A DNA stretch of 64,000 bases from Cymodocea nodosa. Lineage: Eukaryota > Streptophyta > Magnoliopsida > Alismatales > Cymodoceaceae. The DNA is taken from the NCBI GenBank assembly GCA_036874045.1, contig CM072345.1:823501-887500 (forward strand), read 5' to 3'. The notes beneath the pieces were generated by a model. It searched no databases. It was not told where the DNA came from and saw nothing but the letters and a program-made list of their open reading frames with translations. A program made the position numbers and the translations under genes. Of the stretch, positions 14,958-57,963 are shown one piece after another (positions within the stretch are counted from its first letter, which is position 1; each line of letters opens with the position of its first letter).

Positions 14958-17154
14958 TGTTTGGTTACCAGCACGACACTAGAAAACTTATTTGGATCTC
15001 TAGCAACGCACTAGAAAAACTTGTATTTGTTAACTTCTGTTTTTACTTAGTTAATTTATCTTTATGCCTATTCCTTTTTTTTAGAAGTAAACAAACAACC
15101 TTTCACACAAATTAGATTTTAATTCCAATTTGTATTTTAACTACAAGTGCATAGTGTCTATTGTATTAGTGTGCAAGTATATGTCGATCTCACAGAGAAT
15201 TGTTTAAGAATTGAGAACTGTTCCGTTTGTTAATAATCAAATTAATATCTTTAATAAGCCCTCCGTTGAGTTACAGTTAACTCAACGGACAAAGTTCGTT
15301 AAGTTATGGTTAACTCAACGGACTAACCTCGTGGACTTATATTAACTCCACGAGCCTTCCTTTTCTTTTTAATACTGCTATTTATAGAGGAATTCGGCCA
15401 ACCATTGGGTGGTTCCACAGATTGTAAATAACATCAATTAAGCTCTTTAATGTTAGTAAACACTGGATTTATCATTAAGTAATACTAACATTCAGATAAT
15501 TCAAACAGTAACCATTAAAATCTTTAAGTTTTTTGAACGAACTAATTTTAATAAACTGTAAAACTAAAACAAACATAAAACAATCACAACACTGACAAAG
15601 ATAACATTAATCACGATACAACACAAACAATACAACACTCAAATACAAAATACAAACACAGATAAATTATTTTTGGTATTTTTGTTTTAATATGAACATG
15701 GAAATGGGCAAAATGTGAAATGTAAAGTAATCTCAATCGACAGTAAATACTTCTGTCACTACATGCGATGTGATTACACCACTGAAAATTAAACCACTTA
15801 CAATTCTATCTCCTCTCCCTATAGAATCGCGAGTCTAGAATTGCAAGATGATCTCCTCTTCAGCATACAGGCATCAACCCGAAACCAAGGCTAGAAGCTT
15901 TACGATCTCCTGAAATATGAGTCAGCGCTTGGTGAAAATGGCTTCCCTTCCTGCGACGTGATCACTCCTCACAATGGTTGTTAGGCACTGTATTTGGCTC
16001 GGAATCGACCTGACATCAGGAAAGTATTCTCACATACCTCCGATGGTTGGTGATTATGGTGGTGGTAATGATGGTTGGTGTGGTACTTCAGAGAATTACC
16101 GATACTATCTGCAGAAACTCGGTGCTCCTCCTTTGTACACATTGGCCATACCCATCGATCACACACCCTTTACTTCTTTTTCTTCTTTTCTTTTATATTT
16201 CTTCAATGGTAACTGCTTCTGCTTGAATGGTCGGTTGGATTTCCTTCATTCATATCAATGACGATGATTTCTTCTCTTTGCGCGATACGTGCGATCATGG
16301 TTTTTCCTTCCAACTGTCCTATTTCTGCAACTGCTATAGTGGCATATTAGAAAATAAATAGTCTGTGGAGTTACAGATAACTCAACGGACTTGCTTCGTT
16401 GATTTAACTATAAAACACATGCATAAATTTAACTATCCGATGCTCAGGTGCATTTCAGATAGTTACAGATAACTCACCGATATATAACTTAAGTAAATCT
16501 ACTAGATCTCGACACGTGTCAGCAGTAGTTTAATAATAAAAGAAACATTTCGGAGAGTTACAGATCTAACTATCCGATGCCCAGTTGCAATTTTGGATAG
16601 CTAGAAATAACTTACCGAAAATCCACTTAAGTCACTTTCCTAGAACATGACACGTGTCCACAGCTATTTTATAAATAAAAGGAGATTTCAGAGAGTTACA
16701 CATATAACTATCCGATGCCCAACTGCAATTTCAGATAGTTATAGATAACTCATCGAAAATTCACTTAAGTCATGCATTATGGTTTCGACACGTGTACTTC
16801 AGGAAATAATAAAATATTCTTTTAAAACATAACTGTTCGGTAATTTAAACATAACTATCTGATACATGTTCGGTATGTTAAACATAACTGTCCGAAATAT
16901 GTTCGATATGTTAAACATAACTATCCAAAATATCAGAAAATTCGGATACTTAAGAATTTCATAGCCTGCAACTTACCGACAGTTCAAAAATGTACTAAAT
17001 TAACATTAATTCCCCAAAATTAAGCAGATTCTTTAATTAAAGCTTATAACAGTGCAATTATAACATAATAGTTTAATTCTCATATGATAAGCTAAATATT
17101 ATGCAATTAACCATCATTTAACCGTTAATAATATGCACTTTTTCATTCTAAACA
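14958..17154 (-). repeat. Athila-1 3' LTR
   Basis: On the plus strand it runs from TGTTTGGTTACC to TTCATTCTAAACA, so in element sense TGTTTAG...CAAACA. A TATA box TATAAATA (minus strand, 15379-15386) gives the LTR promoter. Downstream of it are three stem-loop sequences (15262-15355), including a perfect 12-bp stem with CAGT loop at 15262-15289. The outer 60 or so bases contain two primer-site-like copies (see findings). An antisense open frame at 15974-16261 is not conserved in frame in the other LTRs and is not called as a gene. Confidence 0.85.
16425..16800 (-). repeat. about 138-bp tandem repeats in the Athila LTR, each with hairpin motif and G-box
   Basis: Three direct repeats each hold AACTATCCGATGC, then a near-complement such as TTTCAGATAGTTA, then an ACTTAAGT block and a CACGTG core: GACACGTGTC at 16511-16520 and 16649-16658, GACACGTGTA at 16787-16796. 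G-box spacing is 138 and 138 bases. The G-box is the core of ABA-response elements in plants. Because this is upstream of the TATA box in element sense, it is in U3, where enhancers lie. Confidence 0.8.
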
Positions 17155-18949: not shown

Positions 18950-20086
18950 TTAAGAACATGATTGAAAAGTAGAAACAAATGGAATAAACGTGTCAGTCCA
19001 AGCAAACTTTTTAGGCATAATTCTTCTTGCTATTAATTCTGTTTTAATGCAGTTCTTGTTCTTTCTTAATTTGTAAACGTGTAATATATTATAAATTTCA
19101 AATACAAGTGTATTACCATTAATGAAATGAAATGTAGAAAGGGATCCTTTTCGGTTCCAGGATAATGTAGTAGTTTCTATTTCTACATCTATTTCAATAT
19201 ATTCCTCTTCCCACTTCCATTCATTTATGTCTTTCATAATCCATATTTGAAATTTCATCAATTCATCCCACCATCTTATCAAACATAAAGTAGGATCATC
19301 ATATTCATTATACCACATTCCTATTTGAATTTTATCAAATTCTGTAGATGGTGGTTTAGCTATTTCTCTCGGTATAGGTAAAATTTCTATATATTCATCA
19401 TAACTATTTATGCTCACTATGTATAAATCAAATCTAAATGCAACTGATATATCTGTGACAAGATATATATATCCATCAAGTATGGTATGCATGCTGTTAA
19501 TTAATGATTTCTGTCCTAGATATATCATAGTATTTTTAGTCCAAGATCTATTCAGAAAATTATACACACTTAAGCATAAATCTTCATCCTAATTTCCTGT
19601 AGGTCTCCAATAATATAATTTTTTAGGAATTGTAGAATTTTTATTAGAAAATATTAAAGCTTACCCACAATTTACAGTTAGTACTTCATATCTATTAGGT
19701 CTTCCTATATTCCATTCTTCTCTTGTTATAGGATTTCTTATTAAAATATCAGGTAATAGACTTGCATACCTTGGTCTGGTCCTGTATATGATTAATCATT
19801 CATCCATCCCCATAATATGATCTATTCCTTCTAATGTATTGGGTGGAATTCTAGTAGTTTCTTCCATATTCAGATATTCATGGGTAATTGAACTACGATT
19901 AAATGACTTCCATATGAATCCATCTCTAATCTTAGTCATTTTTGTAGCTTGTAGTCGCTGAAAATATTTTTCTCCAACACAGTCTTTAATATCCTTTGAT
20001 ACACAACATAGCCTGCACAGATCTTTAGCTGATAAGTTACTCAGTATTTCCCTTAGTGCATCCAATGGTAATTGCATCAATTCCAT
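18950..20086 (-). pseudogene. F-box plus F-box-associated-domain ORF carried by Athila-1
   Basis: From ATG 20086 the start MELMQLPLDALREILSNLSA leads into a full F-box (residues about 6-45: LPLDALREIL, AKDLCRLCCVSK, EKYFQRL), the Skp1-binding module of SCF ubiquitin ligases. The same frame continues to the stop at 18950 through a region typical of F-box-associated domains (ILIRNPITREEW, MIYLGQKSLINS, DISVAFRFDLYIV, SLSTFHFINGNTL). In-frame stops are TGA 19796-19798, TAA 19661-19663 and TAG 19589-19591. Athila-2 has sense codons at the last two, and shares the first. Intact length would be about 378 residues, normal for plant F-box/FBA proteins. In the host family this would select substrates for degradation. 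The target is unknown. Capture from a plant gene is inferred. Confidence 0.85.
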
Positions 20087-20144
20087 TTGTTGATTCTATA
20101 TAACACAAACAAAAATTTAGTAGAGACAAACATTAACATAACTA

Positions 20145-20215
20145 CTGCACACTCTCGTGGAATTAGGGCATAACTCAACGAACTAAGTTCGTTGAGTTAA
20201 GGACTAACTCTACGA
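20145..20215 (-). other. hairpin-motif block upstream of the F-box ORF (Athila-1)
   Basis: Contains ATAACTCAACGAACTAAG and TTCGTTGAGTTAAGG, complementary arms of the same motif that forms stem-loops in the LTR leader. It sits about 60 bases upstream of the F-box ATG in element sense. Confidence 0.6.
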
Positions 20216-20271
20216 TACTATTAACTATAAATAAACATATATATACAGATAGTTGCTTTAGTTATACTACT

Positions 20272-21614
20272 TCATTCAACTATCTTCCTAGAAGAGGTAT
20301 CAATTTCATTAACAGTTCTATTGACAGGGTTAGGTATTGCTTGTATTGGCAATCCTCTAGTGGGTCTAACTTCCATTGATTCCTTCTGTCTAAGTGGTAT
20401 ATTTCTATTCTGATTTTGAATTGCAGCATTTCCAAATACAAAATCCAAATGATTGTTTAATTGTTGGATTATCTTTTCTAACTTCTCTATTCTAGATCCT
20501 TGTTCAAGTAATGCTTCATAACTTATGTTCTTCTCATTTATATTTTCTCCTCTCTAGAAATTGTTGTTTCTCCAAGATAAATTCGGGTGATTTCTCCAAT
20601 TAGGATTATAAGAATTTCCAAAGTTATCTTTTTGATTTCTAGCATAAATAATATCTAAATCATTAATGTTTGCATTATTTTCTGCTAGCTTTGATTTAAT
20701 GATAACTCTTCTATTTTCTTTGTTAATTCAGTTAATTTCACTTCAAGCATAGTACTTGAATCTATTTCATGCATTCCTCTTGGCAATATTCTTTTATCTG
20801 AAATAGTTTCAGTCGAGTTTTCCCACTGTGTAGTTCTTTTTGCAAAGTTTTCTAAATATGCCCATGCTTCTTCACTACATAGTTTCAGAAATCCATTTTG
20901 ATAAGTAGATTCTAATAAAGATTTCGTTGAAACATCTATGCCTTCATAAATTATACATATTAATTGTGCTTTACTCATTGCATGATGTGGACATTGAGTT
21001 AGTAAATCTTTAAATCTTTCAAAATATTTCTAGAATGATTTACCCTATTTTTGGCTACACATTAATATTTCTTTTTTCTTTTTAATCATTTGATGTGTTG
21101 GATAATATTTTTCCAGAAAAATAGAGCAAAATTCAGTCCATGTAGAAATTGAATCAGGCGACAAAGTATATAACCATCTCTTGGCTGTGTCTTTTAAAGC
21201 AAAAGGGATATATCTAAGTTTAATAGCATCTATACTCATGTTCAGCATTGTCATCATTTGACAAACTTCATTAAATTCTCTAAGGAAATATTAGACATCC
21301 TCTCTTTCTAATCCATGAAAATGTGTCAATTGACTAATATAATTATATTTCAGTTCAAACCTCTTTCCCTCAAAGTTTGGCAATCGAATACATGAATGCT
21401 CATCAACTAATTCAGGATACAGAATTTCTCCTAATGGTTTTTCTATTAGAGCAGCCATCTTTACGTTCTCTTTTAAAGAAAGGTTAGCTACACCCCAAAG
21501 AATTTTGTTAAAGTCTAATTCAGAAAATGTTTTAGTATGCCTCTGTGTTGAATATTCCTAGGTAGGTATTCTTACTAATCGTTTAGTGCTTAGAGAATGA
21601 GTCCAAGTGCTCAT
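20272..21614 (-). pseudogene. gag: displaced Athila gag N-terminal half
   Basis: From ATG 21614 (MSTWTHSL) on the minus strand come the landmarks of Athila gag: the retrotransposon-gag core (FALKDTAKRWLYTLSPDS and EFCSIFLEKYYPTHQ, 21045-21257), IYEGIDVSTKSLLESTYQNG (about 20870-20960) and YNPNWRNHPNLSWRNNN (about 20570). A coiled-coil-like segment (RIEKLEKIIQQLNNHLD) follows, ending near 20272. Several stops and frameshifts interrupt it. Gag should follow the primer site, but here it lies between ORF3 and the F-box ORF. Athila-2 lacks this 1.55-kb block at the same place (47210-47225). How it got here is unknown. Confidence 0.8.
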
Positions 21615-21954
21615 AAATAAATAGTAGAAGATTAATTACATATCAGTTTGAAGCTTTTCATTTAGTAAATATTTGTTGACGGACGAAGTCGAATCAGTTG
21701 CTTCTCCTTCCAGTTCCCCCAATGCTTTCCTTCTTACTTTCAAAAGTGCTGGTAACTCGTAAATAACATTCTGTTTTATATATATAATGCACATCCATAA
21801 AGTGAATAAATCTCGTTGCAAGAACGTGTCTTGCAACGTGCATTGTGGTTCTTGTTTTTATGGGTACGTGTACCACTATTAATTTCAAATTTTGGTAACC
21901 GCTAAGCCAACGAAGTTTCATTCGTGGTTAAAAGAATAACCGTTCTGCTTAATC

Positions 21955-33571: not shown

Positions 33572-33576
33572 TCAAC

Positions 33577-35548: not shown

Positions 35549-35635
35549 ACTAGTATCAAAGCATAATTAAGAGCTTTCATTTCTCTATTTAGGAATCAGT
35601 TTTTCTTGTCATTTACTTTGGATCATCTGTTTAAA

Positions 35636-42953: not shown

Positions 42954-43216
42954 ATTTCCCTCTTTTTGATGATGTCAAAACCTAATATGTCAAATAATCT
43001 ATCTTCTCCCCCTTTTTGGCATTATAAAAAAGTAAATAAAATGTAAGGAAGAAAAACTTGCTAAGTATATATCATTCAAAAAGACATTTTTAAACATGCA
43101 TAACTTTCATGGATAAGAATAAACTGTTTAAATAAAACTTTTTGAAACAAAAATTGTCAAAAACAAGTATATGATCATTAAATGTAGTAAACAGTTTACA
43201 TAATGCGATTGCTTTA
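42954..43216 (-). other. inverted SIRE 3' end with polypurine tracts
   Basis: The minus strand repeats the order of 33577-33836: AACTGTTTACTACATTTAATG, then AAAAAGGGGGAGAAGAT (about 43013-43029), then AAAAAGAGGGAAAT touching the LTR. It ends at CTTTA (43212-43216), the duplication flanking Athila-2; the SIRE sequence resumes at 57964. Confidence 0.85.
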
Positions 43217-44314
43217 TGTTTGAGTTTTGTTAACTTCTGTTTAGTTGTGACAAGTTAAATCTTAAACTTGCTTATATTAGTAATTCCTTTTTGAAGTAAA
43301 CAAACAACCTTTTACACAAATTAGATATTAATTCCAATTTGTATTTTTAACTGCAAGTGCATAGTGTATATTGTATTTTTGTGTAAGCATAGGTCGATCT
43401 CATAGGAATTGAGTAAGAATTGTGTACTGTTCCGATTTTAATAATGAAATTTATATGTTTAGTAAGCACTCCGTTGAGTTATGGCTAACTCAACGGACTA
43501 ACCTCGTGGACTTGAATTAACTCCACGATGCTATCTTTCCAGTCTAATACTACTATTTATAAAGGAATTTGGCCAATCATTGGGCGGTTCCATAGATTGT
43601 AAATAACATCAATTAAGCTCTTTAATGTTAGTTAATATTAGATTTATCATTAAGCAACACTAACATTTAGATATTTCAAACAGTAACCATTAAAATCTTT
43701 AAGTATCTGGAATGAATCAATTTTAGTAAACTGTAAAACTATTTTCTATTTTCTAAATCAAACAAACACAAAACATTCACAATACTGACAATGATAACAT
43801 TAATCATGATACAAAACAAACAATACAACACTTAAATACGATATGTAAACACAGATAAGTTGTTATTTTTGGTATTTTTGTTTTGATATGTTCATGAAAA
43901 TGGGCAAAAGGTGAAATGTAAAAAATCTCTATCGACAGTAAATACTTTTGTCACTACATGCGACGCGATTACACCACTGAAAACTTAAGATAGTTAGCAG
44001 ATAACTTACCAAAAATCCACTTAAGTCATGCATTATGGTTTCAATACGTGTACTCAAGGAAATAATAAAATATTCTTCTATCGTTAAAAACATAACTGTC
44101 CGGTACATGCAATATAATTCTCTGAAATAATAGAAAATTTGGATACTTAAGAATTTCATAGCCTACAATTTATTGACAGTTTTAAAATATCCTTCATTAA
44201 AGCATATAACAGTGTAATTATAATATAATGGCTTAATTCTCATATGATAAGCTAAATATTATGTAATTAACCATCATTTAACCGTTAATATTATGCATTT
44301 TTTCATTCTAAACA
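43217..44314 (-). repeat. Athila-2 3' LTR (internally deleted)
   Basis: From TGTTTGAGTTTTG to CATTCTAAACA. It carries the perfect 12-bp stem-loop TCCGTTGAGTTA / TAACTCAACGGA at 43470-43497 and a TATAAATA box (minus, 43554-43561). Relative to 55857-57963 it lacks the stretch between CACTGAAAACTTA and GATAGTTAGCAG (junction about 43986), removing most U3 repeats. Confidence 0.9.
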
Positions 44315-44326
44315 CTTCCCCCATAC
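44315..44326 (-). other. Athila-2 polypurine tract
   Basis: In element sense GTATGGGGGAAG abuts the 3' LTR, identical to Athila-1. Confidence 0.85.
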
Positions 44327-46073
44327 TTAAATTTTGCTAGTCCCTTAGCAAACTAAGATCTAACTAGTTGGTCTTTCTAAAGTGCTAGAATTAATTCTTC
44401 ACATCGTTTTTCTTCAGAATACATAATTTAGATTACTATATAGATATTCTGTATGTTTTAGTAATCTGTTTTAACATTGTTTTCTCCTCTTCAACCTGTA
44501 AATATATTTAGAACATATGTAAATTACATACAAAATATATCAGCATCACATAGGTGTTAATTATATTATTATTTTTTTTCTTTTCAACATCTGTCATCTT
44601 GAATTTTCCAATATGATTTCTAGAATAAATTTCAACTACATACGAATCAAAACACAATCCAATTCAATATGATTAAAACAAGTAGAATAAAAAATTGTAT
44701 CTCAAATAAACAACTTCAAAAGTCTATTCTAGATTCATACTTCAGCAATTTGAGATAACAGAAAATATACTCGATTCAAAAGATATCTGTATTTCACAAA
44801 ACACTTTTATCTTTTCAGAATAGTATATGCATATTTGTACTTTAAAAGTTAATTTGACAAGCTTGAATCATACAAGAGCTTTCTAGTGTACCTATGTATC
44901 GAGCTTTAAGTCAACAATCCCAGATCTGATCAAGATCTTAGGTTGCCAGATTTAAAGAGTCTTTTTTCAGGTCAATAATGCTTACATACCTATCTGCTCA
45001 AGTACAAAAGGCTCGTGATCAAACAAGTCAATAAACTCTCAAAGTTTTTCTCTTTTTTTCTTCTTTTTTTTCTTTTCAACACAATATAAATACGTATTTC
45101 ATTAATACAGATGCAATAAAACACAAATCTCATATAATCCTACTTCCATTTTTTAATGAAAATATGAATCCATATCAATAAGCTCATACTTTTTTTGTAG
45201 TTTAATAAGATCTACACATAAATCATTGTACAAGTTTAATCACTCAAATTAAATGTATCCTTAATCATATGCATCTCATTTAATCAAAAAATCAACATTT
45301 AAGCTCTTTCAAGATTTCAGATAATTTACTGAGTTTCAGTTAAGCTATATCTAGATTTGTATGAATAGTAAAAATTTTTTGTAGCATCTTATAAGATTAT
45401 AAATATAACATTTAAGTAGTTATAGTTACATAAAAATTTATAATCTCAATCATCGGATAGTTATAGCAAATTCATAAAAATTTTCAATTTCCATAGAACT
45501 TTTGCAGTACCATTCTAATTCCTCTAATTAACAAAATTATTGGTTGTTACTTTAATCACCTCCCCCCCATACCTACATTTTGGATTGTCCTCAATGTAAA
45601 AGATTTCACAATAAATACAGTAATTGTAGTAGGCATGAATATTGTTTCGTTGACTTAGCACCTAATTCAACGAACTTAATTTGTTGAGTTAATGAATAAC
45701 TCCATGAATTGAGTTTAAATGTAAATTCAAGATAAGTAATCAATTACATACCTTGTCCTTTTGTATTTCCTTCAATATCTTTTGATTTTTGGTTCTAAAG
45801 AACTTTTCATTCACAAATAAAAGTAGAATATATAACAACATAACAAAACATAACTTGTTAATTAGTGTCTTGTGTGGAACTTAGGCTCTTATGCCTTTGG
45901 TGGCTCACAAGCAAGCTAGTTGGTTTCCTAGAATAGATACCAACAAACTGGATTGATATTTTGTTTTTCTTTTCTTATAGAATAAAATTAAAACTAAAAA
46001 ATTTTCTCTTCTTTTTCTTTTTCTAAAAAATAAATGCAGAATACACACAACATTAAACGCACAAAATCACAGT
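44327..46073 (-). other. Athila-2 3' noncoding region with second polypurine-like tract
   Basis: Collinear with 17167-18949. The second G-run (plus strand CCTCCCCCCCATACC, about 45558-45572) keeps the flank ATTTTGGATTGTCC. It also carries one ACTCAACGAA / TTGTTGAGTTAA motif pair near 45666-45692. No conserved frame. Confidence 0.7.
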
Positions 46074-47210
46074 TTAAAAACATGATTGAAAAGTAGTAAC
46101 AAATGGAATAAATGTGTCAGTCCATGCAAACTTTTTAGACATAATTCTTCTTGCTATTAATTCTATTTTAATGCAGTTTGCTTTCCTTTTTAGCTTGTAA
46201 ACTTGCAGTATGTTATCAATACTAAAGATAAGTGTATTTCCATTAATGAAATGAAATGTAGAAAGGGATCCTCTTTTGTTCGAAGATAATGTAGCTGTTT
46301 TTACTTCTACATCTATTTCAATATATACTTCTTCCCACTTCCATTCATTTAGGTTTTTCATAATCCATATTTGAAATTTCCTTAATTCATCCCACCATCT
46401 TATCAGACATAAAGTAGGATCATCATATTCATTATACCACATTCCTAATTGAATTTGATCATATTCTGAAGATGGTGGTTTAGCTATATCGCTCAGTATA
46501 GGTAATATTTCTATAAAATCATCATAATTGTCTATGCTTACTATGTATAAATCAGATCTAAATGCAACTGATATATCTGTGACTAGATATATATATCCAT
46601 CAATTATGACATGTATGCTGTTAATTAATGCTTTCTGTCCTAGATATATCATAGTATTTTCAATCGAGGATCTATTTAGAAAATTATACACACTTAAGCA
46701 TAAATCTTCATCCCAATTTCCAGTTGGTCTCCAATAATACAATTTTTCCAGAATGGTCGAATTTTTATCAAAAAATATTAAAGCTGACCCACAATTTTAA
46801 GTTGGTACTTCATATCTATTAGGCATTTCTATATTCCATTATTCTCTTGTGATTGGATTTCTAATCAAAATGTCAGGTAATCGAATTGCATATTTTGGTT
46901 TGGTTCTGTATATAATTAATCATTCATCTATCCCCATAATATGATCTATTCCTTCTAATGTATTGGGTGGAATTCTAGTAGTTTCTTCCATATTCAGATA
47001 TTCATAGCTGATTGAACTATAATTAAATGACTTCCATAAAAATCCATCTCTAATCTTAGTCATTTTTGCAGCTTGTAATCCATGAAAATATTTTTCTCTA
47101 ATACAGTCTTTGATTTCCTTTGATACACAACACAATTTGCACAGATCTTTAGCTGATAGGTTACTCAGTACTTCCCTCAGTGCATCCAGTGGTAATTTCA
47201 TCAATTTCAT
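46074..47210 (-). pseudogene. F-box plus F-box-associated-domain ORF carried by Athila-2
   Basis: ATG 47210 (MKLMKLPLDALREVLSNLSA) opens the same 378-codon frame as in Athila-1, with F-box residues AKDLCKLCCVSKEIKDCI and associated-domain segments ILIRNPITRE, MIYLGQKALINSI, DISVAFRSDLYIVS and SLSTFHFINGNTL. Stops: TGA 46920-46922 (shared with Athila-1) and two more between 46750 and 46920 at codons that are sense in Athila-1. The frame is also open upstream of the ATG (NIKLQTESQQ reads in frame into MKLM), so an N-terminal extension is possible. Many differences from Athila-1 are conservative (I/V, K/R, D/E, T/S), hinting at past selection on the protein. Confidence 0.85.
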
Positions 47211-47529
47211 TTGTTGTGATTCAGTTTGAAGCTTTATATTCAGTAAATAGTTGTTGACGGATGAAGTTGAATCAGCTGCTTCTCCTTCCAGTTCCCCAAC
47301 GAATTTCCTTTTCTTCTACAAGTGCTGGTAACTCATAAATAACATTCTGTTCTATATTTATAATGCATGCCCATAAAGCAAATAAATCTCGTTGCAAGAA
47401 CGTGTCTTGTAACGTGTAGTGTGGTTCCTATTTTTATGGGTACGTGTGCCACTTCTTATTTCAAATTTTCAGTAACCGCTAAACACACGAAGTTTCATTC
47501 GTGGCTAAAAGAATAACCGTTTAGTTTAA

Positions 47530-47705
47530 TCCACGAACTAACCCCGTTGAGTTACAGTTAACTCAACGGACTAGCTTCGGTTACTATTGCTAACTCCATG
47601 GACTAACTGCGTTGAGTTACATATAACTCAACGGAGTGACCTTATATTATATTATTGACCTCGTGGAGTTAAGGTTAACTCAACAAACTTACTTTGTTGA
47701 GTTAA
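47530..47705 (-). other. array of stem-loop motifs between ORF3 and the F-box region (Athila-2)
   Basis: Perfect 11-bp arms CCGTTGAGTTA / TAACTCAACGG at 47544-47569, perfect 10-bp arms at 47610-47633, and a third GTGGAGTTA / TTAACTCAAC pair near 47673-47692. Same place and order as 21955-22125. Confidence 0.8.
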
Positions 47706-48140
47706 CACTTAGCAAATTTCTAAAACTTGCTCCTCATATTAACTTCTATATTTTTTTTTTCTCTTGCATTTTGTAAACTTAAATAAAGTTAAATACATGT
47801 CATTAATGTAGTGTTCTAATTTAACTCATTTAAATCTGAACATTATATGAATATTTAACTTGTAGTTCATTTCATGTTGTGCAGAATTTACATTTTACTT
47901 TGCAGCATGCAAATATTTTCGAGCATTATCCAGTTATCTTGTACTTAATCCTATCATTCAACAAATTTGTATATCTTTTAAACAATCTTGCATCTTGTTC
48001 AAACAATTATATAATATTCAAGATAGTTCATCCATTACATCTTTCTCAAACACGACTGCAAAAACACATTTAATTATTAGATTATAATAAATCAGATATT
48101 TTTCATACAAATATAAGTACAAGTAGACGAACACTACAAT

Positions 48141-50387
48141 TTAATCTTTCTTCCTAAGTTCATCTACTTCCTTCTGGAGTTTTTCTAATTGTTGCACTAA
48201 TTGGTTTATCCTTTCTACAGCTCTTGTAATTCCTCCAAAAGGTTCAGCAATCTCTATAGCAGCATAATTTCTGTATTCTTTCACTGAAATGGTTCTTGAT
48301 CTTATCCTTTTGGATGTCCATTTTGTGAAATCCATACTATCCACCATCAACAGTGGAATTAGATCTCCATAAAATAGTTTCTTCTTTACTACTCTCGGCT
48401 TGGAGATAAAAACTGCAGACCAATTAATCTGAATTCTGTTCACAACTGCATAGGTGGCCCATTTGACAAACTAACTTAATTTAATATCATGGCCTTGTTG
48501 TTGGTAGACATTCTTAATCAAAATGTTAGCTATCATGTGTGCTTTACCATTTAAGTGCTTCAGTCTATTTAATAATGACACACTAGAATTGATAGCTAAA
48601 CAATCCTTTATCATCTGTTCTGTCCACTCAATTGCAGTTGTGCTTTCTAGATTTTGTATTCCTTCATTTCTCAATCTTAAAATGTTGTGGAGAAGCTCTA
48701 GTGTTATCTGTACATCAGCTTGCTCCACGCTGGAAAATAATCCACTTTCTTCTTCTCTTAAATTTTCAAAGAAGTAGGGCACTAGATTCTCATATACTGC
48801 ATGCCCTCTCTACTAGGAAATAAACTGCAATAGACCTTAGAACTTAAATAAATCCTTAATTTCTTGCATCCTGTCCTAATTTACTAATCTACCATATATG
48901 ATATCATAACCCCTAATCTCTTGGTATTTATTATATGCTTCCTAACTCTAAAAGTGTACTTCATTCAAAACTGTTGCTTCAGTCGAGTCAGGAATGTGAA
49001 TTTGTTGCTCTAGAGGGGTTTGTTCTTGAACTTCCTCTTCCATGTACTGAACTTGAATTGACTGAAAATGCTTCGAAAATTCCTGCATTTTTGCTTCTGC
49101 TTCTGTCTATGGTAGAGGGTTGGCAGAACTCTCCACTATGTCTTGAATGCTTTCTAAAATTTGTTGAAGAGTTCTTTGCTCTTTAGTGGAATCTATCGAG
49201 TCATTTCTTTCCATATGTATTTGTTCAGCTTCTTGTTCAGTTTCTTCTTTTTCTTCATCCTCTTGACTACTAATCTGCATTGTCACTGTTCTTTTTGATT
49301 CTGTGGTAGATTGGGATGGAGTTACAAGCACATCAGCTTCTACCCTAATTTCTGTTTCTTCTGCTTGCATAGGCTGCAGATTAGTTTCAGCCTGATTTTC
49401 TTCTTCTCTTTACTCTTGTTGTTGCTGCTCTTGCTCATCCTCAGAATCAAATAGCAGGTTTACAAAAATCGACTCTACAGGCCCTACTAATATTTGCATC
49501 TCAGATTTAATCTCTTCTTGATGTTCAGGCACTATCTCTTTTCCTTTCCTTCTTTTGATTAATTGTGCCTGGTATTCCTCTTCTTCTTCTGAGATTAAAT
49601 CTACAAAAATAGGCACTGTAGGCCTTTGAGCCACAAGTACTAGCTCTTCATGTTTAACTTTTTCTACAATTGTTGGTCTTGAAGGACCAGCTTCAGCGCC
49701 TCTTATAGTAAGTCTGGTAGTGGCTTCTTTATGCTATTCAACTTTAATTTTATATTGGGCTTTCAACTTTTTTGCAGCCCTCTTTTTACACCGTGCATCA
49801 AACACTAGATGTGCTATAGCTACTACCAACTCTTCTAGTTCTCCTTGGTCTTTTCCTATTTGAACCAATTCTTGAAATTCTCTTATTTCTTCCTCAGTAG
49901 AAGGCCCCAAAATTGCTGTTCTTTCTAATGGCCTTGGTGGTGGAACTGAAGGTCCAGGCTGCTATTCCTTAGGGACATGTCCTTCAGCAGTCGACTCCTC
50001 TTATTCTTTAGTTGCCTGTTCTTCATTTTCTTTCCTTTGTTGCTCCCAGATTGCTCACTAAGCCCGTCTACCTATGCGTCTTTTGAACCAGAGCCGGGAC
50101 TTACATTGGATCAATTCTAGGGCAACTTCGTTATTTGGCTTGATTCTTCTCTCTCTGCTTACAACTTCTGTAGCAACTTTTATTCTCATTTCCATAATCT
50201 GAGGTATTTGTATACCTAAATCTACTAATACTTTCCTCTAGTAGAAAAGGTCAGATTCTACCTTTTGTAGTTCTTTCTCCCTCGTCGTATTCCTGATTTT
50301 CTGCCTTGTGTGCCATTCCTCTGAATCTTTAAGAAATTCTAACGTGTCAACTACATATTCCCAGAACTCGGGTGTTATCTTCCTCAT
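48141..50387 (-). pseudogene. Athila-2 ORF3 (envelope-position gene)
   Basis: From ATG 50387 (MRKITPEF). Same architecture as Athila-1 ORF3: a Glu/Gln/Lys-rich N-terminal part with motifs IFVDLISEEEEE (about 49575-49615) and IFVNLLFDSEDEQ (about 49440-49475), then the conserved domain (PYFFENLREEE, ITLELLHNILRLRN, RLKHLNGKAHMIANIL, NRIQINW, KKLFYGDLIP, KRIRSRTISVKEY) and a C-terminal coiled coil (QQLEKLQKEVDELRK). Stops and a frameshift break it. The small number of non-conservative changes against Athila-1 in the C-terminal domain suggests that part was under constraint. Confidence 0.75.
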
Positions 50388-50539
50388 CGTGGAGTTACGC
50401 AACAGAACGGAATCGCTCTGATCTCCACTAGTCTAAGTTATAAATGATTCTGCGGATAATGCCCCTAAATCCTAAGTTTAATATAAATAAGCCCTAAGTT
50501 TAGATGGGTAATCGGGTCATTTCCCACACAAACTCTCGC

Positions 50540-50700
50540 TCTCTCATCCGTGGAATTACGGTGAACTCCACGGACTAAGTTTGTGGACTTAACTACAGTA
50601 CTCCGATGAGTTATAGTTAACTCAATGTGGTAAGTTCGTTAATTTATCTTAGACTCAATGGAGTAAGTTTGTTGAGTTAAGTGTAACTCAACGGACTTTC
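50540..50700 (-). other. stem-loop motif block upstream of ORF3 (Athila-2)
   Basis: TCCGTGGA / TCCACGGA arms at 50547-50574, and GTTGAGTTA / TAACTCAAC arms at 50671-50692, with half-sites between. Lies between pol end (51108) and ORF3 ATG (50387), as in Athila-1. Confidence 0.7.
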
Positions 50701-51107
50701 CGTAAAGTTATATCTAATAAAAATACGTATAATAATACCTTTTACTTCGGTCAAGACCGAAGAATTTCTGGCCTAACTGATTCTTAATTTTTCAACATTT
50801 TAAAATTTTTCAGTCAAACTGTTATATCCCTCGGTTGAATTGAAATTAAATATATATATATTTTTCCTATCGATTGAACCGGTACTATACTTCGGTAACA
50901 CTGACATTAAACTAAATATAATATATAGATTTTTTTTTTTAAGTTTTTGTGTTTTGGTTAGATCGATAGATCCTGTCAGTTGAACCGCAACAATTTTTTT
51001 CTTTTAAAATATGTTTCGGTAAAATCAATAATTCCTTTCGATTGAACCGTGACTATGTTTTAAATAAGTTTTATTTATTTATTTATATATATTTAGAAAA
51101 TTTCTTA

Positions 51108-54100
51108 CTAAGTAAAGCTCGAGTAGTCCTCTACTCTTACTTCTTCTATAATTTCAAAAGAACTTTTTGGTATCTTCAAAATAAGTCTAAGTCTTTGTCC
51201 ATTTACTTTAAATATATTTTGATTTTTAGGATTTTCAATTTCAATAGCTCCATAGGGATAAATATTTCGAACTATGTAAGGTCCTGCCCATCTAGATCTT
51301 AATTTTCTTGGATGGTTAAGGAGTCTAGTCATGTAAAGATATACTTCTTATCCTATTTCAAAGGTTTTTGGAATAATTTTCGTGTCATGCCAGAACTTCA
51401 TTTTCTCCTTTTCTCTTACATTTTCGAATAAGCTTCATTCCTAAATTCTTCTAATTCAATCAATCATATTTTCCTATTTTCAACAGCTTGATTTAAATTA
51501 GTGTTCAGAGTTTTTAATGCCCAATAAGCTTTATGTTCAATTTCAATTGGTAAATGACAACTTTTTTCATATACTAGCTTAAAAGGTGACATACCTAAGC
51601 TTGTCTTATAAGTAGTTCTATAAGCCCAAAGTGCATGTATCAATCTATTAGCTCAATCTGTTCTAGTAGGATTTACTACTTTTTCTAAGATTAACTTAAT
51701 TTGTTTGTTTGCACTTTCTACTTGTCCACTTGTTTGCGGATGATATGATGTTGCAATTTTGTGGTTTACTCAATATTTCTTCATTAAGACTTCAAAACTT
51801 CTATTACAGAAATGAGTTCCTTTATCACTGATAATAACTTTAGGTATTCCAAATCTAGCAATTATATTGGTTCTTATAAAATGTATTACCACTTTGTTGT
51901 CATTAGTTTTTGTAGGAATAACTTCTATCCATTTAGATACATAATTCACCCCCAACAATATATAATTAAATTGATTAGATATAGGAAATAGACCCATAAA
52001 ATCTATTCCCCACACATCAAAGATTTCAACCTCAACAATAGGATTAAGAGGCAGCATATTCCTCTTTGATATTGTTCCTATTTGTTGACATTTTAAACAA
52101 CTTAAGCAATATTTATGAGCATCTTTGAATAGTGTTGGCCAATAAAATCCACATTGTAGAATTTTGGCAGTAGTTTTCCCTAAACCAAAATGCCCTTCAC
52201 ATGCTTGGTCATGGCAGAAAGACAATATGCTCTGATATTCAGTTTCTGGAACACACCTCCTTAAAACCAGATTAGGACATTTCTTAAATAAGTATGGGTC
52301 TTCCAAATAGTAATATTTTACTCTTGAAAAGAGCAATTTCTTATCATGTCTATTCCAATCCTTAGGTGTTAAACCAATAAGTAAGTAATTAACTATGTCT
52401 GCATACCAAGGTATTGTGTTGATGGTCATTAATTGTTCATTAGGAAAATTATCCTTAATTTCCATATTTGATTTTTCTATTTGTAATCTTGATAAACGAT
52501 CTGCTACTACATTCTCACAACCTTTTTTAACTTTAATTTCTAAATCAAATTCTTGTAATAATAATATCCATTGGATCAATCTAGGTTTAGTCTCTTTCTT
52601 TGCTATAGGTGTTTTAAAGCTGAATGACTTATGTATACTATCACTTTAGCTCCAATCAGATATGATCTAAACTTTTCTAAGACAAACACAATAGCTAATA
52701 GCTCTTTTTCAATAGTTGTGTAATTAACTTGAGCATTATTTAAGGTTTTGCTTGTATAATGAATCACTCTAGGAGATTTTTCTATCTTCTGTCCCAGCAC
52801 TACTCCTACAGCAAAATCAGATGCATCACACATTAATTCAAATGGATGACTCCAATTAGGTGCTTGTATTATAAGAGTTGAAATTAAACTAGTTTTAAGC
52901 TTGAAAAATGCTTCTTTGCAATTTTTATCAAAGTTGAATGAGACATTTTTTAATAGATTAGTTAAAGGTCTAGCTATTTTGCTAAAATCTTTAATAAATC
53001 TTCTATAAAATCCAACATGTCCTAGAAATGATCTAATATCTTTTACTGATTTAGGTTCTGGTAGATTAGAAATTACTTCTATTTTAGCTTTATCTACTTC
53101 CAACCCCTTCTTTGAAACAACATAACCTAAGACTATTCTTTGATTAACCATGAAGTGACATTTTTCCCAATTTAGAACCAGATTTTTTTCCACACAACAT
53201 TTTAATACTTGGTCTAAATTATTTAAACACACTTTATATGAAGTTCCATAAATAGTAAAATCATCCATAAATATTTCTAAAAAAATCTTCAGTCATTTTA
53301 GTGAATATGCCTTGCATACACCTTTGAAAGGTGTCTAGTGCATTGCATAATTCGAATGACATTCTCTTAAAAGCATAAGTTCTATTTGGATAGGTGAAAG
53401 TTGTTTTCTCTTGATCCTCTAATGCTATTGGAACTTGGTTATATCCTGAATACTTGTCTAGGAAACAAAAATATTCTTGCCCTACTAATTTCTTTAGCAT
53501 TTGATCTATCAAAGGTAAGGGAAAATGATCTTTCCTAGTCACAACATTCAACTTTCTATAATCTATACACACTCTCCAGCCTGATTGAATTCTAGTAGGT
53601 ATCAAGTCCTGACTTTCATTCCTAATAACTGTTAATCCTGATTTCTTGGGAACTACATGGATTGGACTAACCCATGAGCTATTAGAAATCGGATAAATTA
53701 TGTCATTATCTAACCATTTCACTATTTCCTTCCTAACTACTTCTTTAAGATTTGGATTTAATCTCCTATCAGGAATTCTAACAGGTTTAGCATTCTCTTC
53801 TAAATATATGTGGTCACAGCATAAAATTGCATTTAACCCTTTTATATCAGTCATAGTCCATCCTATTGCTTCTTTATAAGTTTTTACTACATCTTTTAAT
53901 TTGGCAATTTGATACTCTTTTAAATCTGAAGCAATAATGATTGGACATGTTCATTTTTCTTCCAGAAATATATAGGTTAATTCAGGAGGTAAATGTTTTA
54001 ATTCTAATTATTACCCATCAGAAGCTAGAGCTCCTAATTGAACAACATCCTTTTCTAAATTAATTTCTTCCTGATCTCCTTCTATATTTATGCTTTTACT

Positions 54101-54661
54101 TTCTTCTAAAATCTTAGAATTGAGTTTCCTATTTAATTCTTCTTGAATCACATCATCTAGCATTTCTCCTTCATCCTCTAAAAAGTCTATAGTATGTAAG
54201 GACATTTCTAACTCCTCAAACTTTTCTGGTTTGAAAATGTTTAATTGAGTATCCTTATTACCATATCTTAACTTCATTACTCTAGTTTTACAATTTATAA
54301 TAGCCCCTAATCTTTTTAAAAATGGTCTTCCCAAAATTAAAGATGTATCACTATTTTTATGCCTAATTTACAAAGTTAGGATATCAATAGTATATATGAA
54401 GTTTTTGATTTTAATTAAAACATCCTCTATTTTTCCTCTAGGGTATCTTATACTTCTATCAGCTAATTGAATAACAGTCCTAGTAGGGATGAAGCCTTCT
54501 AATCCTAAGGATGCAAATATATCACTTGGCATAACATTTATACCTGCACCTAAGTCTATTAAGGTTCTTTCTAGAATGATATTTCCTTTGGTACATGATA
54601 TAACAGGAATTCCAAGATCAGATAACTTTTTAGGAATTTGTGGCAGAAATAGGGAACTACT
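51108..54661 (-). pseudogene. pol: Athila-2 pol: protease, RT, RNase H, integrase (broken)
   Basis: The frame continues from gag through one TAA near 54662. Protease: LIDLGAGINVMPSDIF (about 54525-54570) with catalytic D-L-G-A. RT: WRVCIDYRKLNVVTRKDHF, FLDKYSGYNQ (usual DGYSGYNQ altered), MDDFTIYG at 53268 after a frameshift. RNase [29 protein letters not shown], and [11 protein letters not shown] where the usual TDH aspartate is lost. Integrase: [29 protein letters not shown] (first catalytic Asp changed to Asn), ISDKGTHF. The C-terminal part ends VEDYSSFT at 51108. Inactive. Confidence 0.9.
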
Positions 54662-55663
54662 TTACTCAGCTAAAAAGGCTTTCCTTAAAACTTTTCGCTC
54701 TCTTTTCTTAGTATACCAATCCTTAAGAAATTTAGCACAAGGTGGCATTTTCTGCAATAAGTCTAACAAAGGAATGTTAACTTGTACTTTTTCAAAAATT
54801 TCTCTAATTTTTTCTTGTTTTTCAAGAAATGTTTGTTGTAATCTTTCATGATAGGGTGCTAATGATTGTGATTTAAAAGATTCTTTTTCTTTCATTTGAT
54901 TTGTTTGATCATTTTTAGTCTCATTTTTAGATTCAAACTTTTCTTCATTGATTTCTATATTTTCAGATATTACATTTTCATTATCATTTTGATTTTTGTT
55001 CTTATCCACCTTCATATTATTTTCGTTTTGAATTCTTGATGGTATATCAGTTCCAGATCTTAATGTTATACATATATCTTCCAGATTTTCGTTACTTTCT
55101 TGATGTTCTTGTATTTCATTTTCGTGATTATGATCTTCAACTATTTTTAGTTTTAAATTACATTCTTTAAATTCTATTGCATTGGTATTTTTTGTTATTT
55201 GTATATCTTGTAAATTATGTAGATCTATAACATTAAAATTTTCATTTGTGTTTTCTTGTTGCATAACTTGTAATTTCATTGTAAACTCATCCAATGCTTT
55301 TAGTTTTCTTTCCAAATCATCTAATCTCATTACATTCAATTTTTGATTGATTTTTATTATAATTTTTTCAGTTTCGTATATAATATCAATTTTTGGTTCT
55401 GAATATTCTTCCTTATAGTTTAATTGGTTGACTTCTTGTTGCTGACACATATATTGTTCCAACTTGTCTATGTTTTGTTCTAAGTTACGCTCTAGTTTGT
55501 CATACCTATCCCAAACTTCCTTGTCTCTCAACATATTACACATTCTAAACTGACCATCAGTTGGGTAAACCATAGGATTCTCATACTCAGATCTATTATA
55601 GTGAAGATAATTCATTTGTTGTTCATGCGATCTAACATTTGCAATCGTCTCAGTTTCAAACAA
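54662..55663 (-). pseudogene. gag: Athila-2 gag C-terminal half
   Basis: A 333-codon open stretch on the minus strand reaching 55663, where a TGA precedes it. It contains Gln/Glu-rich coiled-coil-like sequence (KLERNLEQNIDKLEQYM), CITLRSGTDIPS, SLAPYHERLQQTFLEKQEK and VNIPLLDLLQKMPPCAKFLK, all standard landmarks of the gag-protease linker in Athila-type elements. The gag core and the WRNHPN motif found at 20272-21614 are absent. Only about 170 bases separate it from the primer site, so the N-terminal half was deleted or never present in this subfamily. Confidence 0.85.
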
Positions 55664-55831
55664 TCAGAAATGTCGTGACCTTCTAAATTGTAGAATACAC
55701 ATATGCTAACTATAGGTTTCAGAAATCTTTGAGCATAAGCATATGCCATATTCTCAATTATAGAAGAAAACACACAACACTTTTCTTGCTATTAAAACAA
55801 AACGACATTTATAGTTGCTAAGCTACTCAAT

Positions 55832-55849
55832 TCCTCGACAACGGCGCTA
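55832..55849 (-). other. Athila-2 primer binding site
   Basis: In element sense TAGCGCCGTTGTCGAGGA, close to the TGGCGCCGTTG-type primer site of Athila elements (Asp tRNA, as I recall). It fixes the element's orientation and identifies the right LTR as the 5' LTR. Confidence 0.85.
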
Positions 55850-55856
55850 GAAAACT

Positions 55857-57963
55857 TGTTTGGGTTTTGTTAACTTCTATTCAGTTGTGACAAGTTAAAT
55901 CTTAAACTTGCTTATATTAGTAATTCCTTTTTGAAGTAAACAAATAACATTTCACACAAATTAGATATTAATTCCAATTTGTATTTTTAACTGCAAGTGC
56001 ATAGTGTATATTGTATTTTTGTGCAAGTATAGGTCGATCCCACAGGAATTGAGTAAGAATTGTGTATTGTTCCGGTTTTAATAATGAAATTTATATGTTC
56101 AGTAAGCACTCTGTTGAGTTATGGCTAACTCAATAGACTAACCTCGTGGACTTGAATTAACTCCATAATGCTATTTTTCCAGTCTAATACTACTATTTAT
56201 AGAGGAATTCGGCCAACCATTGGGTGGTTCCATAGATTGTAAATAACATCAATTAAGCTCTTTAATGCTAGTTAATATTAGATTTATCATTAAGCAACAC
56301 TAACGTTTAGATATTTCAAACAGTAACCATTAAAATCTTTAAGTATCTAGAATGAATCAATTTCAGTAAACTGTAAAACTATTTTCTATTTTCTAAATCA
56401 AACAAACACAAAACTTTCACAATACTAACAATGATAACATTAATCACGATACAAAACAAACAATACAACACTTAAATATGAAATGTAAACATAGATAAGT
56501 TGTTATTTTTGGTATTTTTGTTTTGATATGTTCATGAAATTGGGCGAAAGGTGAAATGTAAAAAATCTTTATCGATAGTAAATATTTCCATCACTACATG
56601 CGACGTAATTACATCACTGAAAACTTAATCACTTACAATCTTGCCTCCTCTCCCTATAGAATCGTGAGTCCAGAATTGCAAGATGATCTCCTCTTCAGCA
56701 TACTAGCATCAACCTGAAACCAAGGCTAGAAGTTTTATGACCTCCTAAGATATAAGTTAGTGCTTGGTGAAAATAGCTTCCCTTCCCACGACACGATCAC
56801 TCCTCACAATGGTTGTCAGGCACCGTGTTTGGCTTGGAATTGACTCGACATCAAGAAAGTATCCTCACAGAGCTCCGATGGTTGGTGATTATGATGATGT
56901 TGGTGATAGTGTAGATGCTTCAGTGAACTTTCGACGCTGCCTACAATTAGCACGGTCCTCCACCTTTATACACACTATCAAACACTGCCAACCACACTTT
57001 CTTCATTTTTTTTCCTCTTCTTTTATATTTCTTCAGTAGTAACTACTTCTGCTTAGATGATCGGTTGGATTTCCTTCATTCATATCAACGATGGTGATTT
57101 CTTCTTCCTTTCACAAGTGAATTCCTGCGTGATACGTGCAATCGTCTTATTTTTGTAACCGCTATAGTGGATATTAGAAAATAAATGGTCCATGGAGTTA
57201 CAGATATCTCAACGGACTTACTTCGTTGATTTAACTATAAAACACGTGCAATAAAGAAATAAGCTGCTAACGTAACGCGTTACCTTAGTGTATATTCATG
57301 TAACTCAACGCGTATAGTTATGCTAACTTAACGAGTTCAACATGTGCATCTCTCGTGACATAATAAAGCATTTAAATTCAACACGTGCATAATTCTAACT
57401 TAACAAGTTCAGGTATTTTGGACACTTACTAACCTAACTATCCGATGCTTAGATGCATTTCGGATAGTTAGCACCTAACCTTCCGAAAGATAACTTAAGT
57501 CAAGTTTCTAGAACGCGACACGTGCCCTCAAGCAGTTTTATGATAAAAAGCTATTTCAGATACTTAAAAATCTAACTATTCGATGCCTAGATGCATTTTG
57601 GATAGTTAGCAGATAACTTACCGAAAATCCACTTAAGTCATGTATTATGGTTTCAACACGTGTACTCCAAGAAATAATAAAATATTCTTCTATCGCTAAA
57701 AACATAACTATTTGGTATATGCAATATAACTCTTCGAAATAACAGAAAATTCAGATACTTAAAAATTTCACAGCCTGTAATTTACCGACAGTTCAGAAAT
57801 GTACTAAATTAATGTTAATTCCTTGAAATTATGTAGATTCCTTCATTAAAGCATATAACATTGCAATTATAACATAATGACTTAATTCTCATATGATAAG
57901 CTAAATATTATGTAATTAACCATCATTTAACTATTAATATTATGCACTTTTTCATTCTAAACA
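55857..57963 (-). repeat. Athila-2 5' LTR
   Basis: From TGTTTGGGTTTTG to CATTCTAAACA on the plus strand. TATAAATA (minus) at 56194-56201. The leader stem-loop is degraded here (CTGTTGAGTTA / TAACTCAATAG). U3 carries AACTATCCGATGC units near 57440, a G-box-like GACACGTGCC near 57517 and TGACTTAAGTGGATTTTCGG (minus) at 57619-57638. Confidence 0.9.

What the first reader, a model, noticed from the sequence alone, without database searches (positions are those of the whole stretch)
46074..47210. A Ty3-gypsy Athila-like element carries an F-box/FBA gene of plant type
Seen: both Athila copies (46074-47210 and 18950-20086) have, after ORF3 and before the 3' noncoding region, one 378-codon frame with a full F-box (LPLDALRE..LSNLSAKDLC) and an F-box-associated domain. 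They are independent insertions (different flanks), so the ORF was part of the element when it transposed. Known: F-box proteins choose substrates for SCF ubiquitin ligases; poleroviruses encode an F-box silencing suppressor (P0) that triggers loss of ARGONAUTE. Inference: the element may have captured a host F-box gene and used it against a host silencing or integration-control protein.
Basis: partly seen in the sequence, partly recalled or inferred. Interest (0 to 1): 0.92.

Follow-up and report, generated by a model that had tools for sequence, protein, structure and literature searches.

The report
Plant retrotransposon with an F-box gene
A very abundant mobile element in a flowering-plant genome carries its own F-box gene, the kind of gene cells use to mark chosen proteins for destruction, and the gene's code was preserved while the element multiplied, which suggests that the element makes use of it.

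Summary
The F-box frames are real. They lie on the minus strand (46074-47210 and 18950-20086), downstream of pol and ORF3 of Athila-like elements. Each window copy is broken by three stops, and no F-box-associated domain is recognised in either. The frame belongs to the element: its 3' junction occurs 2326 times in the 375-Mb genome; the one F-box-less junction seen occurs three times exactly. The F-box lies downstream in 13 of 16 copies picked by gag and in 9 of 12 stretches picked by protease. Its code is constrained in the 22 copies not chosen on the F-box (corrected N/S 0.67, interval 0.55-0.82; wrong frames 0.91 and 1.18). Shared indels are in frame, frameshifts are private. New here: the gag core sits 3' of ORF3, inside a GT-AG intron that ends 9-11 nt before the F-box ATG. 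Thirty-six genomic sites carry the exon-exon junction, so spliced RNA has been reverse transcribed. Best reading: an internal transcript makes Gag unspliced and an F-box protein when spliced, and that protein probably acts as an SCF substrate receptor. Integration, splicing and constraint are shown by sequence. The promoter, Skp1 binding and any target are inferred. The silencing-suppressor idea is untested.

The parts
43217..57963 (-). Complete Athila-like insertion (here el2), 14.7 kb, carrying the F-box frame; TSD TAAAG at 43212-43216 and 57964-57968
   Evidence: Edges, TSD, PBS and PPT read directly; self-comparison
55857..57963 (-). 5' LTR of el2 (TGTTTAG...CAAACA); TATA box near 56201
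55832..55856 (-). Primer binding site region, like TGGCGCCGTTGCTGGGGA in sister copies (tRNA-Asp type)
   Evidence: Asp type by comparison with Diaspora/Calypso (passages) and recall
54662..55663 (-). C-terminal part of gag at the 5' end, next to protease; the gag core is not found here
   Evidence: assignment as gag C-terminus by recall of Athila gag motifs, no gag model hit
54371..54661 (-). Protease
   Evidence: PF13650 E=0.0082, below the curated cut-off
51773..53950 (-). Reverse transcriptase, RNase H and integrase (in broken frames)
   Evidence: PF00078, PF17919, PF17917, PF17921, PF00665
48144..49961 (-). ORF3 (env-position ORF, Transposase_32-like), broken
   Evidence: PF20167 E=9.7e-6 in the homologous stretch of the other copy, 22568-23260; homology
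47355..47362 (-). TATAAATA box of a predicted internal promoter, 141 nt before the splice junction
   Evidence: TATAAATA in 6 of 8 aligned copies; gap-poor from about 340 columns upstream; promoter function inferred
47221..47222 (-). Exon-exon junction CTTCAAACTG|AATCACAACAAATG: the 1.5-kb intron is absent from this copy
46074..47210 (-). F-box frame of el2; stops at codons 97 (TGA), 124 and 138 (TAA)
43217..44314 (-). 3' LTR of el2, with an internal deletion of about 970 bp; preceded by the polypurine tract at 44315-44325
18950..20086 (-). F-box frame of the second copy (el1); stops at codons 97, 142 and 166
20096..21643 (-). Intron retained in el1 (donor decayed GTATGT to ATATGT; acceptor TATAG), holding the gag core
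   Evidence: gag by PF03732 E=8.2e-9 at 21048-21290 and 7.2e-19 in an uninterrupted relative
20275..21614 (-). gag core (capsid and nucleocapsid part), broken; its ATG lies 29 nt inside the intron (44 nt in L039 and L041)
14958..17154 (-). 3' LTR of el1; el1 lacks its 5' end beyond about 28811

Best explanation
The F-box ORF is a resident gene of a very abundant Athila-like LTR retrotransposon family. Family layout: LTR - PBS - gag C-terminal part - protease - RT - RNase H - integrase - ORF3 - internal TATA box and leader exon - intron containing the gag core - F-box ORF - noncoding - PPT - LTR. SHOWN by sequence: the layout, the intron boundaries, genomic copies made from spliced RNA, constraint on the F-box code, and presence of the F-box in most copies sampled. 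INFERRED: an internal promoter makes one pre-mRNA; unspliced, its first long frame is gag; spliced, the F-box frame comes first, so splicing switches between particle protein and F-box protein. INFERRED: the protein binds host Skp1 through its F-box and uses its roughly 330-residue C-terminal part to bring a host (or element) protein to the SCF ubiquitin ligase for destruction, to the element's benefit. The target is unknown.
For: F-box PF00646 in both window copies and in 6 of 6 uninterrupted copies scanned. Junction counts with up to 2 mismatches: F-box 3' end 2326, acceptor plus F-box start 1236, exon-exon junction 36; F-box-less junction 24 of which 3 exact; reversed-pattern controls all 0. 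In 13 of 16 gag-selected and 9 of 12 protease-selected stretches. Constraint (N/S relative to random placement of the same changes, codon bootstrap): 13 gag-selected copies 0.63 [0.53-0.77]; 22 gag- or protease-selected 0.67 [0.55-0.82], wrong frames 0.91 [0.73-1.09] and 1.18 [0.94-1.50]; transversions only 0.58 against 0.92 and 1.48; divergent subfamilies 0.40-0.51. PR-RT 0.61 and gag core 0.57-0.58 under the same measure; noncoding pseudo-frames 0.74-1.07. Indels common to several of 22 copies are in frame, the frameshifts are each private. Donor CTG|GTATGT and acceptor TACAG|AATC; spliced copies sit in separate parts of the tree.
Against: No RNA, protein or binding data. The two window copies are dead, and 95 of the 108 best full-length copies contain at least one stop. 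0.67 is weak purifying selection, averaged over copies that decay after insertion, and its interval overlaps that of one wrong frame (0.73-1.09; also 0.53-0.77 against 0.66-1.01). Five of the eight protease-selected copies with long pol frames and an F-box in the expected orientation have frameshifts in the F-box, so a copy does not need its own intact F-box. One stop (codon 97) recurs in 7 of 58 copies. The TATA box and leader are read by eye; four of eight copies have one ATG in the predicted leader, each at a different place, and in unspliced RNA a minimal ATG-TAA lies in the donor before the gag ATG. No FBA or other known substrate domain is recognised.
Confidence: 0.65

Rival explanations
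1. Passenger: a host F-box gene fragment was trapped once in a successful lineage and is copied along without function.
For: Many copies are broken (95 of the 108 best have stops), frames are broken in elements with long pol ORFs, and an F-box-less copy exists (L061, L067).
Against: Code constraint is like that of gag and PR-RT and persists in samples not chosen on the F-box and between subfamilies 73-79% identical; shared indels are in frame; a conserved splice acceptor sits just before the ATG; 2326 F-box junctions against three exact F-box-less ones.
Confidence: 0.12
2. The F-box protein acts on the element itself (for example degrading Gag or integrase to limit copy number or time the cycle) and not on the host.
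For: F-box and gag share one module and alternate by splicing; similar strength of constraint on both.
Against: No interaction data; self-limitation would be lost easily, and selection inside the element population usually favours active copies (general reasoning).
Confidence: 0.2
3. The F-box domain binds Skp1 but does not form a ligase: the protein titrates Skp1 or blocks another SCF, or is an env-position structural protein.
For: The C-terminal part matches no substrate-binding family; ORFs between pol and the 3' LTR are often env-like (PMC7264820, first of three parts read).
Against: The C-terminal 328 codons are constrained as well (0.70 [0.57-0.86] in 22 copies), so more than the F-box matters.
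Confidence: 0.2
4. The gag-core stretch is not an intron but a later insertion; copies without it are ancestral.
For: El2 and 35 further sites show the junction without it.
Against: Exact GT...AG boundaries with a T-rich stretch before the acceptor; 1236 acceptor-bearing against 36 junction-bearing sites; gag sequence precedes the F-box also in divergent subfamilies; junction copies are scattered in the tree.
Confidence: 0.05
5. The F-box frame is an ordinary host gene into which elements inserted nearby.
For: None beyond the plant-type F-box.
Against: More than a thousand copies joined to the same element sequence on each side; TSD outside the LTRs of el2.
Confidence: 0.01

Closest known systems
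Athila/Calypso lineage of plant Ty3-gypsy elements (Athila4, Calypso, Diaspora, Bagy-2, Cyclops)
   Same: Long LTRs, tRNA-Asp-type PBS, ORF after integrase with Transposase_32 similarity as in a sunflower Athila (PMC11728184, passages)
   Different: Gag core displaced to the 3' side of ORF3 inside an intron; extra F-box gene. Diaspora has one gag-pol ORF (PMC1142308, passages)
Orchid (Phalaenopsis) Gypsy elements with an AlkB RNA demethylase
   Same: Plant Gypsy family carrying an extra host-type enzyme domain kept in many copies; proposed role against host control (PMC9289625, abstract and one results section read)
   Different: AlkB demethylase instead of an F-box. That screen of 121 angiosperm genomes reports 15 extra domains; those named in the section read do not include F-box, and the word is absent from the main text
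Other additional ORFs of plant LTR retrotransposons (Grande, RIRE2, Retand, PvRetro13)
   Same: Conserved ORF between pol and 3' LTR (PMC7264820, first of three parts read)
   Different: Those four are antisense and their origin is called unknown there; this one is sense and has a known domain
F-box 'LTR-gene' of Thlaspi arvense
   Same: An F-box family gene linked to LTR-retrotransposon-mediated duplication (PMC8764390, passages)
   Different: There a host gene copied and then tandemly duplicated; here a resident gene of the element family
Polerovirus P0 (F-box silencing suppressor)
   Same: A mobile or viral genome encoding an F-box protein (recalled; not tested)
   Different: No sequence comparison made; target here unknown

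Membership tests
Athila lineage (Ty3-gypsy, OTA) | RT/RNase H/integrase of Ty3-gypsy type, order RT-RH-INT | tested here: met
   Pfam hits and their order on the minus strand
Athila lineage (Ty3-gypsy, OTA) | RT/INT phylogeny places it in Athila | not tested
   No reference set of lineage proteins was at hand
Athila lineage (Ty3-gypsy, OTA) | PBS complementary to tRNA-Asp | tested here: met
   TGGCGCCGTTG-type PBS next to the 5' LTR; the Asp assignment rests on Diaspora/Calypso and recall
Athila lineage (Ty3-gypsy, OTA) | No chromodomain after integrase | tested here: inconclusive
   No Pfam hit in two short integrase C-terminal pieces; the frames are broken, so a missed domain is possible
Athila lineage (Ty3-gypsy, OTA) | Athila ORF-1/Transposase_32-type ORF after integrase | tested here: inconclusive
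   PF20167 E=9.7e-6 but under the curated cut-off
Athila lineage (Ty3-gypsy, OTA) | gag core 5' of protease in one gag-pol frame (usual layout) | tested here: not met
   No gag core within 1.5 kb upstream of protease in 15 of 15 loci; in 10 of them the LTR directly precedes the gag C-terminal part. Present 3' of ORF3
F-box proteins | F-box domain above curated cut-off | tested here: met
   PF00646 40-43 bits against cut-off 20.5
F-box proteins | Recognised substrate-binding domain (FBA, FBD, LRR, Kelch) | tested here: inconclusive
   None in window copies; FBA_1 E=0.055 in 1 of 6 uninterrupted copies; structure model too poor to use, pLDDT 40.7
F-box proteins | Binding to Skp1 and SCF activity | not testable with these tools
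   Needs a laboratory assay
Silencing suppressors of the P0 kind | F-box-dependent loss of ARGONAUTE | not testable with these tools
   No sequence or functional test made

The most novel reading that the evidence does not exclude
A plant endogenous-retrovirus lineage has turned a captured F-box gene into a dedicated accessory gene. A retrovirus-like splice switch chooses between Gag and an SCF substrate receptor that removes a host restriction factor (silencing, chromatin or integration control): an LTR-retrotransposon counterpart of viral accessory proteins that redirect ubiquitin ligases (Vif, Vpu, P0; recalled).
Probability: 0.25. Interest if true: 0.95.

Novelty: new variant of a known kind. 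Interest (0 to 1): 0.8.

Why it matters
Extra ORFs of plant LTR retrotransposons are common but mostly of unknown function. Here the extra ORF has a domain of known biochemistry, is kept under constraint in a family of more than two thousand junctions, and comes with genomic proof of how its mRNA is spliced. If it is a working SCF receptor, finding its substrate could name a host factor that limits retrotransposons and give plants an example of a viral-style accessory gene. The displaced gag core, expressed if the intron is retained, would also be an unusual way for an LTR element to organise its capsid gene.

Tried and rejected
Homologues: the F-box frame (X at stops) and a profile of six uninterrupted copies found nothing among 5.8 billion proteins or in viral contigs. 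A host F-box protein of this genome found 559, so plant F-box proteins are held; the limit is five-residue exact words. The FBA_1 family search of the genome gave no match at E<=0.001 (31 candidates scored), but its control rang nowhere, so this proves nothing.

Structure: the model of the C-terminal piece was unusable and no fold search was run. PDB searches gave nothing significant.

McDonald-Kreitman-like test: shared against singleton N:S differed in the F-box (p=0.0002), but four of six noncoding pseudo-frames also gave p<0.05, so I do not rely on it. Raw Nei-Gojobori 0.38-0.39 is not used alone either, because noncoding pseudo-frames give 0.46-0.77.

LTR dating of el2 was not attempted: mismatches are 5.7% over 772 bp, and 30 mismatches plus 37 gap positions over the remaining 363, and no rate is known. 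The reading that the LTR at 31371-33571 is the 5' LTR of the second copy was rejected: it is a solo LTR with its own TSD GTTGA. The shared stop at codon 97 as proof of common descent was rejected: carriers are scattered in the trees.

Rows left out: L061, L065 and L067 (no F-box), and L076, L077, L084 (none found), from codon analyses; L002 and L008 (half length in the locus) from trees; L004 and L007 (fragments) from codon sets; L015 and four spliced copies from the acceptor count; copies without enough gag from the gag analyses.

Full report
What was claimed and what is there. The finding gave two F-box frames in Athila-like elements. Both exist, on the minus strand, with the stated coordinates. 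Each is 379 codons including the stop, and each has three internal stops: codons 97, 124 and 138 in the 46074 copy; codons 97, 142 and 166 in the 18950 copy. The F-box domain itself is beyond doubt (PF00646, E from 2.4e-10 to 3.4e-11). The claimed F-box-associated domain is not recognised by Pfam in either copy. One of six uninterrupted copies elsewhere gives FBA_1 at E=0.055, so the C-terminal part may be a distant FBA relative, but this is not shown.

The element. The 46074 copy lies in a complete insertion, 43217-57963, minus strand. Its LTRs begin TGTTTAG and end CAAACA, and TAAAG is duplicated on both sides. A PBS follows the 5' LTR and a purine tract precedes the 3' LTR. Between them, in order, are a gag C-terminal part, protease, RT, RNase H, integrase, ORF3 and the F-box. 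The 18950 copy is a separate element with a 3' LTR at 14958-17154 and a broken 5' end near 28811. The LTR at 31371-33571 that might be taken for its partner is a solo LTR with its own target duplication GTTGA.

The family in the genome. The window lies in an unnamed 375-Mb genome. A protein search with the F-box frame scored 108 copies (the best of 7033 loose candidates), all near full length, 83-100% identical, 13 of them without any stop. Pattern counts with up to two mismatches are better for numbers. The last bases of the F-box frame joined to the 3' noncoding region occur 2326 times. The splice acceptor joined to the F-box start, in its commonest spelling, occurs 1236 times. The reversed-pattern controls gave 0 each time. 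Of the eight best-scoring F-box hits of the whole genome, seven are element copies and one is a host gene. Divergent relatives also carry the F-box: L001 (79% DNA identity; only the end of gag upstream) and the near-identical pair L002/L008 (73%; gag upstream; about half of the F-box frame aligns in the locus).

Is the F-box always there? Two samples were not chosen on the F-box. Of 16 gag-core copies taken at about every tenth row, 13 have a full-length F-box next to it (several with frameshifts), two lack it cleanly and one runs into an LTR. The two clean absences are 99.6% identical to each other, so they are one event. Their junction lies at a 5-bp repeat, ATGTT, that flanks the F-box unit, which fits a deletion or template jump. 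That junction occurs three times exactly in the genome; 21 further matches have one or two mismatches, and by eye most of these read as ends of F-box frames. F-box-less copies with other junctions would escape this count. Of 12 stretches placed downstream of protease hits with long open frames, 9 hold an F-box. In one of these (L074) it lies on the opposite strand and belongs to a neighbouring element. In the three without it, LTR or copia sequence lies where the F-box was expected, so they do not show an intact 3' end that lacks it.

Selection. I compared observed nonsynonymous:synonymous differences between copies with the same changes placed at random on equivalent bases. On this scale noncoding pseudo-frames give 0.74-1.07, and the F-box sequence read in wrong frames 0.83 and 1.11. 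The F-box frame gives 0.55 [0.45-0.68] in 31 copies chosen by protein score and 0.63 [0.53-0.77] in 13 gag-selected copies. It gives 0.67 [0.55-0.82] in all 22 copies not selected on the F-box, against 0.91 [0.73-1.09] and 1.18 [0.94-1.50] in wrong frames; the first of these intervals overlaps slightly. Transversions alone, which are free of methylation decay, give 0.58 against 0.92 and 1.48. Gag core (0.57-0.58) and PR-RT (0.61) are constrained to a similar degree, the gag C-terminal part less (0.70). Between divergent subfamilies the value is 0.40-0.51; those loci came in by F-box score, which may favour conserved ones. Among the 22 copies, three-base insertions recur at two places, whereas each frameshift is found in one copy only. 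Recurrent stops sit mostly at TGG and CAG codons, as expected from decay of methylated cytosine after insertion. So the frame was kept while elements multiplied and decays once they are silent. Against this: five of the eight protease-selected copies with an F-box in the expected orientation have a frameshifted F-box although their pol frame is long. Either the protein works in trans or it is not needed in every cycle.

The intron and the displaced gag. Comparing the two window copies shows 1.55 kb present before the F-box in the 18950 copy and absent from the 46074 copy. In less decayed copies the boundaries are CTTCAGACTG|GTATGTAATTAATC ... TTATACAG|AATCACAACAGATGG, a typical GT-AG intron, and the 46074 copy reads CTTCAAACTG|AATCACAACAAATG. 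Five such intronless copies were read (L009, which is the 46074 copy, L014, L017, L020, L074); they fall in separate parts of the F-box trees, whose branch supports are modest. The junction occurs 36 times genome-wide with 0 in the control. These copies can hardly be explained except by reverse transcription of spliced RNA. Recombination during reverse transcription could have spread the state, so the number of independent events is not certain. A strict AG test passes in 36 of 46 intron-bearing copies; 7 have AA and 3 others differ. The intron contains the gag core (PF03732, E=7.2e-19 in an uninterrupted copy). That core is not in its usual place: none of 15 protease-selected loci shows it within 1.5 kb upstream of protease, and in 10 of these the LTR directly precedes the gag C-terminal part.

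How it probably works. Upstream of the donor, eight aligned copies share a gap-poor stretch; six of the eight have TATAAATA about 140 nt before the donor. In four of eight copies the predicted leader holds no ATG; in the other four there is one, each at a different place, as decay would give. If this is a promoter, the first long frame of the unspliced product is gag, whose ATG lies 29-44 nt inside the intron after short ATGs, one of them an ATG-TAA within the donor; the spliced product opens with the F-box, 9-11 nt after the acceptor. This is inference. The F-box would then connect the protein to Skp1 and the SCF ligase, and the C-terminal part, also constrained (0.70 [0.57-0.86]), would choose the target. 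A host restriction factor is the boldest target; Gag or integrase are rivals.

Origin and host. No relative of the F-box protein was found, although the same database returned 559 relatives for a host F-box gene of this genome. The best of these were from Colocasia (69%) and Zostera (67%), which weakly suggests a monocot. Capture from a host gene is likely from the plant-type F-box but is not shown.

Literature. Searches of the held library (long lists were cut to the top 10-25) showed no report of an F-box gene resident in an Athila or other plant LTR element in the titles, abstract starts or passages seen. A screen of 121 angiosperm genomes for extra domains does not mention F-box in its main text; its supplementary chart was not seen. 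A Thlaspi study mentions an F-box 'LTR-gene', a host gene duplicated by retrotransposition (passages). Most subscription papers are not held, and a survey of extra ORFs in Ty3/gypsy elements that I tried to fetch was not held. Prior description can therefore not be excluded.

Noticed in passing
20275-21614 (-) and genome-wide: The gag core of this Athila-like family lies 3' of ORF3 inside an intron, while only a gag C-terminal part remains 5' of protease. This permuted layout deserves its own study.
   Followed up: partly
F-box codon 97 (46920-46922 in the window copy): A TGA replacing GGA (a transversion) occurs in 7 of 58 copies scattered over the tree; neither methylation decay nor common descent explains it simply.
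   Followed up: partly
31366-33576 and 43212-57968; L041 4880-4897: The solo LTR and the complete el2 sit within about 20 bp of the same place in two homologous copies of another repeat, with different target duplications: possible target preference.
   Followed up: no
28811-31375 (+) and 57959-60632 (-): A second repeated sequence with its own Transposase_32-like ORF (E=0.026 in L041), in inverted copies beside the Athila elements.
   Followed up: no
43470-43497 and element positions 654, 7271, 10331-10410, 14469-14483 of el2: The motif CGTTGAGTTA / TAACTCAACG, at 43470-43497 as a perfect 12-nt inverted repeat, recurs in the LTR and in the spacer before the internal TATA box; small matches between LTR, intron end and 3' noncoding region point the same way.
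   Followed up: no
43217-44314 against 55857-57963: The two LTRs of el2 differ by 5.7% mismatches over 772 bp, and by 30 mismatches plus 37 gap positions over the remaining 363 aligned positions, so the parts may have different histories.
   Followed up: no
7390-14916 and 33826-41357 (+): Two related copia elements, 88-93% identical in their main aligned blocks, lie beside the Athila elements.
   Followed up: no
whole genome: Seven of the eight best F-box hits of this plant genome are retrotransposon copies, and no FBA_1 match was returned; gene predictors may count such copies as F-box genes.
   Followed up: partly
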